From Margaritispora aquatica (lineage: Eukaryota; Ascomycota; Leotiomycetes; Helotiales; Discinellaceae), in contig VJWN01000017.1 in the NCBI GenBank assembly GCA_007644065.1, positions 62,001 through 126,000 on the forward strand: a stretch of 64,000 nucleotides of DNA. Reading direction: 5' to 3'. Shown piece after piece: positions 3,433 through 17,152 of the stretch. Both the position numbers and the translations under genes were made by a program. Below the pieces are notes generated by a model that was given only the letters and a program-made list of their open reading frames with translations, searched no databases and had not been told where the DNA came from. Numbering within the stretch: the first letter of the stretch is position 1; each line of letters starts with the position of its first letter.

Positions 3433-3438
3433 AAAAAA
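3433..3438 (-). terminator. Pol III terminator (T6) of tRNA-Arg
   Basis: On the minus strand a run of six T residues begins 22 nt after the discriminator base of the tRNA-Arg gene. Runs of four or more T on the coding strand end RNA polymerase III transcription. Its presence argues that the interrupted tRNA gene is still a Pol III unit. Confidence 0.6.
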
Positions 3439-3460: not shown

Positions 3461-3587
3461 TGACCTACGCAGGGCTCGAACTAAATTCGAAGTTAGATAG
3501 GTGACCAAGAAACACTTGATGGAGATGAAGCTTACCCTGCAATCTCTTGATTCGTAGTCAAGCGCCTTACCATTGGGCCAGCAGGCC
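3461..3587 (-). tRNA. tRNA-Arg(ACG) with a 55-nt insertion between T stem and T loop
   Basis: Reading the minus strand from 3587 gives acceptor GGCCTGC, D arm GCC-CAATGGTAA-GGC, anticodon arm CTTGA-CTACGAA-TCAAG (anticodon ACG, complete 7-nt loop, no intron at 37/38), variable loop AGATT and T stem GCAGG. A 55-nt segment (3535-3481) follows, then T loop TTCGAGC, T stem CCTGC, acceptor GTAGGTC and discriminator A. Without the insert the molecule is a perfect 72-nt cloverleaf with two G-U pairs in the acceptor. The A box (TGGCCCAATGG) is intact. The B box (GTTCGAGCC) is also intact because the last base of the insert supplies its first G. A T6 terminator follows. The alternative is a pseudogene carrying an insertion, but no arm shows other decay. 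Confidence 0.85.
3481..3535 (-). other. mRNA-type intron-like insert in the tRNA-Arg T arm
   Basis: The 55-nt insert begins GTAAGC, has a CTAAC branch-like motif 11 nt before its end, and ends TTTAG. Donor, branch, spacing and length match the spliceosomal introns of neighbouring protein genes, several of which also start GTAAGC. Precise GT-AG removal joins GCAGG to TTCGAGC. The junction is ambiguous by one G. I saw no clear bulge-helix-bulge structure at the two junctions; inside the insert only a weak CAAG/CTTG hairpin is visible. How it is removed, if it is, is inference. Confidence 0.7.
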
Positions 3588-14159: not shown

Positions 14160-16427
14160 ATGGCCAACCCACCCAAAAGACCCATAAAACGCCTCCTGAT
14201 AGCAAACCGGTACATACCTCACTACACCTCACATCACTTCTCACTCATCACACTAACATCTCATAGAGGCGAAATAGCAACCCGAATCTTGCACACAGCT
14301 CAAGAAATGTCCATCGAAACTTACACCCTGCATACCACTAACGACACATCACACGCTCTCTCATCAACAAACTCCATCCTCCTCCCTTCACCTTCATCGT
14401 ACCTCTCCATCCCAACGCTCATCCGAATCGCCCAAACTCACCATATCGATGTCATCCATCCAGGCTATGGCTTCCTGTCTGAATCAGCTGAGTTCGCGCA
14501 CCGCATGCTAACAGAAGCGAATACTGTGGTCATTGGGCCTGGCCCGAATGTCTTGGCAAGAACGGGCGATAAATTGCAAGCGAGACGACTTGCTGAGGAG
14601 TGCGGTGTCCCGGTCCTACCTGCTCTCCAAACACCTACGAACGATATCGCCATCCTACGCGCCTTCGCAAACGAGATCGGGTATCCCATGATCATCAAAG
14701 CCGTCGACGGCGGTGGTGGACGTGGGATCCGTATTGTGAGACGAGAAGAGGATCTCGCTTCGCTTGCGAAACTGGCGCTGAACGAAAGTCCTAGCGGGAT
14801 GGCCTTCGCCGAGAAGGCAGCTGTAGATGGGTTCCGTCACGTTGAAGTTCAGATCCTGGGTGATGGGACGGGAGAAATCATGCATCTGTGGGAGAGGGAG
14901 TGTAGTATCCAGCGGCGATTTCAGAAGGTGGTTGAGTTTGCGCCGAGTTCGATTGTGGATCGTGGGTTAGTGGGGAGAGTGATTGAGTCGGCCATGCGTA
15001 TGGCAAGGCAGGTGGGATATCTAGGGCTAGGGACGTGGGAATTCTTGGTCAGAGAGGATGGCGGAGGGGAGGGACATGGGGAGTTTTACTTCCTGGAGAT
15101 TAACCCCAGAATCCAAGTCGAGCACACTGTCACCGAATCTATAGTCCCCAGCGTTGATTTGGTGAAATGCCAACTCTTGCTCGCTCAGGGGGTGTTGCTT
15201 TCCGAATTACCCATCCCTAGGGATATCTTACTCTCTAATTCCTACACCAACGCAAACTCAAAGTACAGCGTAAACATAGCATCGCCGCCACAACTGCATT
15301 CAATCCAACTTCGCCTCACAGCCGAAGACGCATCCAACTCTTTCGCACTCAGCGTGGGCAAAATCACATCTCTGCGTTTTCCAACGGGGCATGGCGTGCG
15401 CATTGACACTCATCTCGTTCCTCCCTCGCTTTCTCCATCTTCACCACCGATTCTCATCGGTGCAGATTTCGACCCTCTTCTCGCAAAAATCATTGTCGTT
15501 GCGCCATCCTGGCGAGAAGTGGTTGCGAAAGCGAGGAGGGCGTTAAACGAGATGAGAGTAGAGGGCGTGAAGACGGATTTGGATTTGTTGAGAGGTGTTG
15601 TGGCGAGTAGAGAGTTTGCGGTGGAGAGAGCGTGTGACACGCGCTGGTTGGAGACGAACTTGGGAGCGATTTTGGAGGTGGGAAGGAGTTTGTCTGGAGA
15701 GGTGGGAAAGAGGGGCGTTGTTATGCCTAGGACAGAGGATAGAGCTTCGAAGCTGGGGATGGGAAATGCGAACGGGAATTTGTCCTTAAGAAAGGGTGAT
15801 AAGTGGACTATTGAGTTGACTCCTGGGTATGAGTCTGGTCCTAAGTCTGGGAAATTACGAATAGGACAGGACGCAGGAAATGAAGGAGAAACCAGGCGTT
15901 CCCATCTCCAACTTACCCAAGTCCGAAGGAACGACTTCCCGAACTCGTTCTCGGCCTCGATCCTCTATACTTCTCCCTCTTCGTCTAAGGCTGTTCCATA
16001 CACACTCAACTTACACTCTTCCAACTCCACCTCAGCCAGCACATCCAACTCCTCATCCCGCCACAAGCCAGCCGACCCAACGAATCAATCCCACCAGAAT
16101 GTCAACTTTCCAATGGCAGGCAAACTAGTTGAGATCCTAGTGCAAAAGGGAGATATAGTGCGCGAAGGCGATACGTTGGCCGTGGTCAGGCAGATGAAGA
16201 TGGAGCTTGAGGTTAGGGTGCCAAAGGGTGGTGGGGGGAAGGTTGTGTGGGTTTGTGGTGGTGCTGAATATGGAGAGGGAGAGGGAGAGGAAGGAGAAGA
16301 TGAGGAGGATGAAAGCGACGAAGCATGTGAAGTGAGCAGAGAGCTAGGCGATATAGAGGAAGGGATGTTGTGTTGTGTACTTGAAAGCCTGGAAAAGGAA
16401 CGGAAAGGTGGTGGTGCGAAACTGTGA
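14160..16427 (+). CDS. Biotin-dependent acyl-CoA carboxylase, biotin carboxylase/carrier (alpha) subunit
   Basis: Carboxylates its own biotin with ATP and bicarbonate. Two exons, 14160-14209 and 14267-16427, encode 736 aa. The 57-nt intron has no stop and is in frame, but removing it restores the family start KRLLIANRGEIATRI, so it is surely spliced. Biotin carboxylase features follow: HPGYGFLSESAEFA, KAVDGGGGRGIRIV (ATP-grasp loop), HVEVQILGD, ECSIQRRFQKVVE and EINPRIQVEHTVTE. A biotinyl carrier domain lies near the C-terminus with RQMKME, where the Lys is the biotinylation site. An acidic run (EGEEGEDEEDES) follows the carrier core and is unusual. The domain layout resembles MCC alpha, but the pair is divergent enough that the substrate is left open. 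Confidence 0.92.
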   Translation: MANPPKRPIKRLLIANRYIPHYTSHHFSLITLTSHRGEIATRILHTAQEMSIETYTLHTTNDTSHALSSTNSILLPSPSSYLSIPTLIRIAQTHHIDVIHPGYGFLSESAEFAHRMLTEANTVVIGPGPNVLARTGDKLQARRLAEECGVPVLPALQTPTNDIAILRAFANEIGYPMIIKAVDGGGGRGIRIVRREEDLASLAKLALNESPSGMAFAEKAAVDGFRHVEVQILGDGTGEIMHLWERECSIQRRFQKVVEFAPSSIVDRGLVGRVIESAMRMARQVGYLGLGTWEFLVREDGGGEGHGEFYFLEINPRIQVEHTVTESIVPSVDLVKCQLLLAQGVLLSELPIPRDILLSNSYTNANSKYSVNIASPPQLHSIQLRLTAEDASNSFALSVGKITSLRFPTGHGVRIDTHLVPPSLSPSSPPILIGADFDPLLAKIIVVAPSWREVVAKARRALNEMRVEGVKTDLDLLRGVVASREFAVERACDTRWLETNLGAILEVGRSLSGEVGKRGVVMPRTEDRASKLGMGNANGNLSLRKGDKWTIELTPGYESGPKSGKLRIGQDAGNEGETRRSHLQLTQVRRNDFPNSFSASILYTSPSSSKAVPYTLNLHSSNSTSASTSNSSSRHKPADPTNQSHQNVNFPMAGKLVEILVQKGDIVREGDTLAVVRQMKMELEVRVPKGGGGKVVWVCGGAEYGEGEGEEGEDEEDESDEACEVSRELGDIEEGMLCCVLESLEKERKGGGAKL

Positions 16428-17070: not shown

Positions 17071-17152
17071 CTCTCTGACGGGGAGTCGAACCCCGATCTC
17101 CCGCGCATTGCCGAATGACAAGCGGAAATCATGACCGTTAGACCATCAAAGA
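17071..17152 (-). tRNA. tRNA-Asp(GTC) with a 10-nt intron
   Basis: On the minus strand from 17152: acceptor TCTTTGA pairs with TCAGAGA, discriminator G. The anticodon stem is TCCGC/GCGGG with loop TTGTCA...C, anticodon GTC. The 10 bases TTCGGCAATG lie between positions 37 and 38, the canonical eukaryotic tRNA intron site. The T arm is CGGGG-TTCGACT-CCCCG. The mature length is 72 nt. It is the ordinary type of tRNA intron and contrasts with the T-arm insert of the tRNA-Arg gene. Confidence 0.92.

What the first reader, a model, noticed from the sequence alone, without database searches (positions are those of the whole stretch)
3461..3587. tRNA-Arg(ACG) gene interrupted by a spliceosomal-type intron between T stem and T loop
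Seen in sequence: the gene is a perfect 72-nt tRNA-Arg(ACG) except for 55 nt placed exactly between T-stem GCAGG and T-loop TTCGAGC. The insert begins GTAAGC, has CTAAC 11 nt before its end and ends TTTAG, like introns of the local mRNA genes. The anticodon loop is intact with no 37/38 intron. A box, B box (its first G is supplied by the intron's last base) and a T6 terminator are present. Known: eukaryotic nuclear tRNA introns normally sit at 37/38; archaea and the red alga Cyanidioschyzon have introns at other sites; S. pombe U6, also a Pol III RNA, carries an mRNA-type intron. Inference: the spliceosome, or an alternative endonuclease, removes it. I know of no described fungal tRNA like this.
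Basis: partly seen in the sequence, partly recalled or inferred. Interest (0 to 1): 0.92.

Follow-up and report, generated by a model that had tools for sequence, protein, structure and literature searches.

The report
Spliceosome-type introns inside fungal tRNA genes
In this fungus the only genes found for one essential transfer RNA, plus a few others, are cut in two by short inserts that look like the introns of protein-coding genes, which suggests that the messenger-RNA splicing machine is needed to make transfer RNAs.

Summary
The gene lies on the minus strand (3587-3461): 72 nt of tRNA-Arg(ACG) split at 53/54 by 55 nt. In this 42.4-Mb Helotiales-like genome five sites have the exact anticodon arm, on five contigs, and all five carry an insert at the same place; no uninterrupted copy was found (inventory partial). 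Two of six tRNA-Lys(CUU) genes have such an insert at 53/54 besides an anticodon-loop intron, and one tRNA-Lys(UUU) gene has one at 60/61. The 8 inserts are 50-61 nt, start GTAAG[CT], end AG and have CTRA[C/T/A] with the A 10-12 nt from the end; interiors are largely unrelated. mRNA-like introns in this genome are in excess at the same spacing. Leaving the insert out gives a tRNA that ARAGORN recognises in 8 of 8. A strict bulge-helix-bulge motif is in 0 of 8. Best reading: U2-type spliceosomal introns in Pol III tRNA genes, with splicing obligatory for tRNA-Arg(ICG). There are no RNA data and no fungal relatives could be searched. Ten searches of open-licence papers gave no such case.

The parts
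3461..3587 (-). tRNA-Arg(ACG) gene with T-arm insert
3536..3587 (-). 5' exon, positions 1-53, ends with T-stem strand GCAGG
3481..3535 (-). 55-nt insert GTAAGCTT...CTAAC...TTTAG, spliceosomal-type intron at 53/54
3461..3480 (-). 3' exon: T loop, T-stem 3' strand, acceptor 3' strand, discriminator A
3530..3535 (-). 5' splice site GTAAGC
   Evidence: the same six bases start a homology-supported intron of a protein gene at 33105-33059
3492..3496 (-). branch-site motif CTAAC; branch A at 3493, 12 nt between it and the exon
3472..3482 (-). B box AGTTCGAGCCC; its first two bases are the AG of the intron's 3' end
   Evidence: consensus recalled
3570..3580 (-). A box TGGCCCAATGG
   Evidence: read; consensus recalled
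3433..3438 (-). T6 run, likely RNA polymerase III terminator

Best explanation
The insert is a U2-type spliceosomal intron in an RNA polymerase III tRNA gene. Pol III transcribes the 127-nt precursor from the internal A and B boxes and stops at the T run. The intron splits the B box, but its terminal AG leaves AGTTCGANNCC, so TFIIIC can still bind. U1 recognises GTAAGC, U2 the CTAAC, and the spliceosome joins GCAGG to TTCGAGC in the nucleus, restoring the T arm before the steps that need one (end trimming, T54/Psi55 modification). In tRNA-Lys(CUU) the T-arm intron would go first and the anticodon-loop intron later by the tRNA endonuclease. Since no intact Arg(ACG) gene was found, splicing would be needed to read CGU and CGC codons. 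Shown: gene anatomy, all five found copies interrupted, signature in 8 of 8 inserts, match to the spacing in excess among mRNA-like introns of the genome, restored tRNA without the insert. Inferred: transcription by Pol III, removal by the spliceosome, order of steps, dependence of the cell on it.
For: 5 of 5 Arg(ACG) genes found are interrupted at one site. 8 of 8 inserts in three tRNA species and at two sites start GTAAG[CT] and end AG; CTRA[C/T/A] with A at 10-12 nt in 8 of 8, against 2.4-4.5% per insert in shuffles; strict CTRAY in 7 of 8, against 1.8-2.4%. Interiors: only 2 of 28 pairs resemble each other more than shuffles at p <= 0.01, so the signals persist where the rest has drifted. 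mRNA-like intron matches in 277 kb of this genome with the tRNA inserts masked: 44 against 17.2 expected at 10-12 nt, 37 against 35.2 at 5-8 nt. A homology-supported mRNA intron in the window (33105-33059, 47 nt) starts GTAAGC, has CTGAC with A 10 nt from the end, and ends TTAG. Joined exons give a tRNA in 8 of 8. No T run over 4 inside any insert, T5-T9 downstream in the 7 with enough flank. Four of six Lys(CUU) paralogues have the uninterrupted site.
Against: No RNA evidence at all. Arg_C14 has CTAAA, not CTRAY. ARAGORN calls Arg_C46 as a tRNA even with the insert, with an odd intron of 39 nt at 38, and Rfam calls both Lys(CUU) genes as tRNA with the insert (33.0 and 33.4 bits). The patterns alone are not enriched: the reversed-pattern control had more matches than the pattern, so the case rests on tRNA context, not on counts. 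GTAAGCTT is identical in 5 of 5 Arg inserts, longer than a 5' splice site needs, and can pair with AG|TT or with GAGC of the T loop, so a structural role is open. The five Arg inserts probably share one ancestor and are not fully independent.
Confidence: 0.85

Rival explanations
1. The insert is a non-canonical tRNA intron cut by the tRNA splicing endonuclease (TSEN) and sealed by tRNA ligase, as in archaea, nucleomorphs and Cyanidioschyzon.
For: 53/54 is a known site for such introns in archaea and in C. merolae. In 5 of 8 inserts GCTT/GCTC can pair with GAGC of the T loop next to the T stem.
Against: Strict bulge-helix-bulge 0 of 8; relaxed form with the intron-side helix 1 of 8, while shuffled interiors give it in 0-36%. 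It does not explain GTAAG, AG and the branch motif at near-fixed distance in 8 of 8. Arg_C14, Lys(CUU)_C24 and Lys(UUU)_C34 do not form the helix. The test is home-made and had no positive control.
Confidence: 0.08
2. The interrupted genes are dead copies, and CGN codons are read by another tRNA or by an intact Arg(ACG) gene missed here.
For: The tRNA inventory is partial: the tRNA family search scored 62 of 1722 candidates and 30 of its 61 matches over the cut-off were read; 9 of 15 rows and 2 of 27 near misses were not read. Four of six Lys(CUU) genes are uninterrupted.
Against: Exon sequences are identical in four of five Arg copies and differ at two bases in the fifth, while inserts have diverged. 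The anticodon-arm pattern with up to 3 mismatches gave 5 perfect sites, all interrupted; ARAGORN found no tRNA in the 25 fetched of 27 near misses and no Arg(ACG) in the 30 best tRNA loci. CGT, CGC and CGA make up 67 of 133 Arg codons in four window ORFs.
Confidence: 0.05
3. The genes are spliced by the spliceosome, but only in RNA polymerase II transcripts that run through them; the Pol III product is not used.
For: Spliceosomal splicing is normally coupled to Pol II (general knowledge).
Against: A and B boxes kept, no T run over 4 in any insert, T5-T9 after the gene in 7 of 7 with enough flank. S. pombe U6, a Pol III RNA, has an mRNA-type intron (abstract start and passages, PMC10484740).
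Confidence: 0.04

Closest known systems
mRNA-type intron of S. pombe U6 snRNA (and U6/U3 introns of other fungi)
   Same: Spliceosomal-type intron in a small structured non-coding RNA; U6 is a Pol III RNA (passages of PMC10484740; passages of PMC5832005).
   Different: Host is a tRNA. PMC5832005 (2017) says U3 and U6 are so far the only small structured RNAs known to be often interrupted by an intron. In this genome the two U6 matches found each cover model positions 1-105 over 106-108 bases, so are uninterrupted.
Non-canonical tRNA introns of Cyanidioschyzon merolae, nucleomorphs and archaea
   Same: Intron in the T arm; C. merolae tRNA-Ile(UAU) has one at 53/54 (figure legend, PMC9602550).
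   Different: Those are attributed to the tRNA endonuclease and, for archaea and C. merolae, to BHB motifs (passages of PMC4090602); here no strict BHB and a GT-branch-AG signature.
Canonical eukaryotic 37/38 tRNA introns
   Same: Interrupt nuclear tRNA genes; the Lys(CUU) genes here carry an anticodon-loop insert as well (read; ARAGORN marks it in C24, not in C49).
   Different: Other site, other ends; the Arg(ACG) anticodon loop is intact.
Introns of protein-coding genes of the same genome
   Same: 5' splice site, branch motif, branch-to-end spacing and length range.
   Different: The inserts sit in tRNA genes with Pol III signals.

Membership tests
U2-type spliceosomal intron | GT...AG ends with a 5' splice-site consensus | tested here: met
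   8 of 8 GTAAG[CT]...AG
U2-type spliceosomal intron | Branch-site motif at the distance used in this genome | tested here: met
   CTRA[C/T/A] 8 of 8, CTRAY 7 of 8, A at 10-12 nt
U2-type spliceosomal intron | Length usual for mRNA introns of this genome | tested here: met
   50-61 nt; 122 of 158 mRNA-like matches are 40-69 nt (tRNA inserts not masked there and no shuffled control for length); one homology-supported mRNA intron is 47 nt
U2-type spliceosomal intron | Removed by the spliceosome through a lariat | not testable with these tools
   no RNA data
Non-canonical (BHB/TSEN) tRNA intron | Bulge-helix-bulge motif at the splice sites | tested here: not met
   strict 0 of 8, relaxed with both helices 1 of 8; no positive control was run
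Non-canonical (BHB/TSEN) tRNA intron | Insertion in a tRNA outside 37/38 | tested here: met
   53/54 in 7, 60/61 in 1
Canonical 37/38 tRNA intron | Position one base 3' of the anticodon | tested here: not met
   anticodon loop CTACGAA intact
Group I or II self-splicing intron | Ribozyme core | tested here: not met
   only 50-61 nt; Rfam at gathering score lists no intron family in the window or in 7 loci with the other inserts

The most novel reading that the evidence does not exclude
In this fungus the spliceosome is an obligatory tRNA-processing machine: every gene found for tRNA-Arg(ICG) must be spliced by it, and tRNA-Lys(CUU) precursors from two genes are processed by both the spliceosome and the tRNA endonuclease. 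Spliceosomal introns have invaded several tRNA genes at T-arm sites, in 7 of 8 cases exactly where the intron's own AG keeps the B box working.
Probability: 0.78. Interest if true: 0.94.

Novelty: new variant of a known kind. Interest (0 to 1): 0.9.

Why it matters
Eukaryotic nuclear tRNA introns are treated as the business of the tRNA endonuclease and ligase. Genes of an essential tRNA that depend on the spliceosome would link translation to mRNA splicing, show that Pol III transcripts beyond U6 can be spliceosome substrates, and show a way for introns to enter a B box without stopping transcription. tRNAscan-SE 2.0 describes its search for non-canonical introns for the archaeal mode (passages of PMC8450103), so such genes may well be missed in fungal annotations (inference); an apparent lack of tRNA-Arg(ACG) in any fungal annotation can now be checked directly.

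Tried and rejected
Assembly error, chance, mobile element: rejected. Five Arg copies have different flanks and interiors, and the region with its insert matches at E <= 0.001 only these five places in the genome.

BHB folding: tested and not met; a covariation test is empty because the paired bases hardly vary among the five Arg genes.

Spliceosomal introns elsewhere in tRNAs: a pattern for the variable region (15 rows: one lies in an intact tRNA, one was read upstream and is not recognisable as a tRNA; 13 not read) and one for the stretch after the T loop (16 rows: one is Lys(UUU), one other was read and shows no tRNA by eye; 14 not read) gave no further case. D arm and anticodon arm were not searched. 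Of 48 rows, 30 loci were read: three of the inserts, two ordinary tRNAs, 25 without a tRNA called by ARAGORN. Of 25 rows, 7 are the tRNA genes; of the other 18 one was read upstream. In some searches the reversed-pattern control had more matches than the pattern, so counts alone show nothing.

Relatives: viral contigs patterns gave 0 and 0 and 7 matches without a T loop downstream; genome contigs gave one tRNA with an intact T arm in a record titled as a Saprospiraceae bacterium. No fungal genome collection was available.

U6 interruption in the same genome: none in the two matches found.

Full report
WHAT IS THERE. The gene is on the minus strand. Exon 1 (3587-3536) ends with the T-stem strand GCAGG; a 55-nt insert (3535-3481) follows; exon 2 (3480-3461) starts with the T loop TTCGAGC. 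The anticodon arm CTTGA-CTACGAA-TCAAG is uninterrupted. The window's standard tRNA scans miss the gene. The host is a fungus: a 533-aa window protein and a glutamyl-tRNA synthetase fragment match Helotiales among named hits, with Drepanopeziza, Cadophora and Mollisiaceae (71, 70, 68%) and Phialocephala subalpina (89%) on top; the closest hit of each search is unnamed. The assembly is 42.36 Mb in 49 contigs.

ALL COPIES FOUND. The 18-base anticodon arm with up to 3 mismatches occurs at 32 sites; 5 are perfect, on contigs C1, C9 (window), C14, C46 and C47. All five have an insert at the same site. Of the 27 near misses 25 were fetched; ARAGORN finds no tRNA in any of them, one has a B-box-like match nearby. 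A second pattern for any uninterrupted tRNA with anticodon ACG gave 15 rows; 6 were read, of which one is called tRNA-Gln(CTG) with an anticodon-loop intron and five are not called as tRNAs; 9 were not read. The RF00005 search scored 62 of 1722 candidates and lists 67 matches, 61 over the cut-off; the loci of the best 30 hold no Arg(ACG) by ARAGORN, 37 rows were not checked for anticodon except those named here.

OTHER tRNAs. A pattern for a GGTANG...AGTTC insert gave 25 rows: among them the five Arg genes and two tRNA-Lys(CUU) genes (C24, C49), which also carry an anticodon-loop insert of 20-25 nt; ARAGORN marks it as an intron in C24 (25 nt at 37), and calls C49 Lys(CTT) without marking it. 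Six Lys(CUU) genes were found. The other four have the uninterrupted T arm: GTGGGTTCGAGC is printed for three; for C1 the print stops at GTGGG after 80 of 88 matched bases, and the pattern leaves room only for TTCRANYC. So the empty site can be read next to the filled one. A tRNA-Lys(UUU) gene on C34, with no other match at E <= 10, has an insert at 60/61. Rfam at gathering score calls the two Lys(CUU) genes with their inserts (33.0, 33.4 bits) and none of the other four Arg loci or Lys(UUU).

THE SIGNATURE. The eight inserts are 55, 61, 57, 54, 54, 54, 54 and 50 nt. All start GTAAGC or GTAAGT, all end AG, and the motif CTAAC (6), CTGAT (1) or CTAAA (1) has its A 12, 12, 12, 12, 11, 12, 12 and 10 nt before the exon; two inserts have a second such motif further upstream. 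Shuffled interiors show such a motif at 10-12 nt in 2.4-4.5% of cases per insert. Apart from the first 8 and last 16 bases only 2 of 28 pairs of inserts resemble each other beyond shuffles. So the five Arg inserts, probably of one origin, kept little but the splicing signals. Among mRNA-like intron matches in 277 kb of this genome (tRNA inserts masked; pattern matches, not proven introns) the branch-to-end distance is in excess at 9-14 nt (72 seen, 34.0 expected from resampled sequence) and at 10-12 nt (44, 17.2), not at 5-8 (37, 35.2) or 15-26 (33, 37.1). A protein-gene intron in the window, placed by homology at 33105-33059, starts GTAAGC, has CTGAC and ends TTAG.

TRANSCRIPTION. The B box with the insert is AGTTCGANCCC in 7 of 8, one mismatch from consensus, because the intron ends AG just where the box has GG; the Lys(UUU) box scores 6 of 9 (7 of 9 spliced). 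No insert has a T run over 4; T5 to T9 follows the gene in 7 of 7 with enough flank, and for C49 only 19 bases were at hand. This fits Pol III; it is inference.

SPLICED PRODUCT. With the insert left out ARAGORN calls tRNA-Arg(ACG), Lys(CTT) or Lys(TTT) in 8 of 8; with it, 1 of 8 (Arg_C46, with an odd anticodon-loop intron).

ENDONUCLEASE ALTERNATIVE. No strict bulge-helix-bulge in 8; five can pair GCTT or GCTC with GAGC of the T loop, one of them with an intron-side helix, within what shuffles give. No positive control of this home-made test was run. The consensus fold of the five Arg precursors pairs AGCU of the intron start with AG|UU, without variation that could test it.

CODON DEMAND. 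In four window ORFs (1988 codons) CGT, CGC and CGA are 17, 24 and 26 of 133 Arg codons. That tRNA-Arg with inosine at 34 reads CGU and CGC is established knowledge; A34 deamination to I by ADAT/TadA is described in passages of PMC8007984. Whether a UCG tRNA reads part of CGA was not examined.

LITERATURE. Ten searches (full text of open-licence PMC papers) listed no paper whose title or abstract start reports a spliceosomal intron in a tRNA gene. Seen as passages only: PMC4090602 (archaeal and algal non-canonical introns), PMC8450103 (non-canonical intron step described for archaea), PMC5832005 (U3 and U6 the only small structured RNAs known to be often interrupted), PMC10484740 (S. pombe U6 mRNA-type intron), PMC9602550 (C. 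merolae 53/54 intron; cmPus4 does not act on U55 while the T-arm intron is present; D- and T-arm introns go before the anticodon intron), PMC8007984, PMC13149111, PMC6461891, PMC10161547. Subscription papers and preprints are mostly not covered, so priority is not certain.

VERDICT. Confirmed and extended. It works like a spliceosomal intron by the sequence tests available; removal by the spliceosome itself is untested. Filed as a new variant of a known kind: a known intron class in a class of host gene where I know of no report.

Noticed in passing
G000 C24, C49, C1, C2, C45, C46 (tRNA-Lys(CUU) genes): Paralogous tRNA-Lys(CUU) genes with (2) and without (4) the T-arm insert coexist in one genome, all with anticodon-loop inserts of differing sequence: a natural comparison of filled and empty sites.
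   Followed up: partly
5 Arg inserts, first 8 bases: GTAAGCTT is identical in all five Arg inserts, more than a 5' splice site needs; it can pair with AG|TT or with GAGC of the T loop. Role unknown.
   Followed up: partly
window 17071-17152 (-): tRNA-Asp(GTC) called by ARAGORN, 82 nt, by eye with an anticodon-loop intron.
   Followed up: no
G000 C38: Contig dense in tRNA genes, probably mitochondrial; the same tRNA set appears at about 5.3-7.4 kb and 39.0-41.1 kb, perhaps an assembly overlap of a circular genome.
   Followed up: no
window 14160-16427 (+): A biotin-carboxylase-like ORF (by eye) reads through what looks like an in-frame intron near its start.
   Followed up: no
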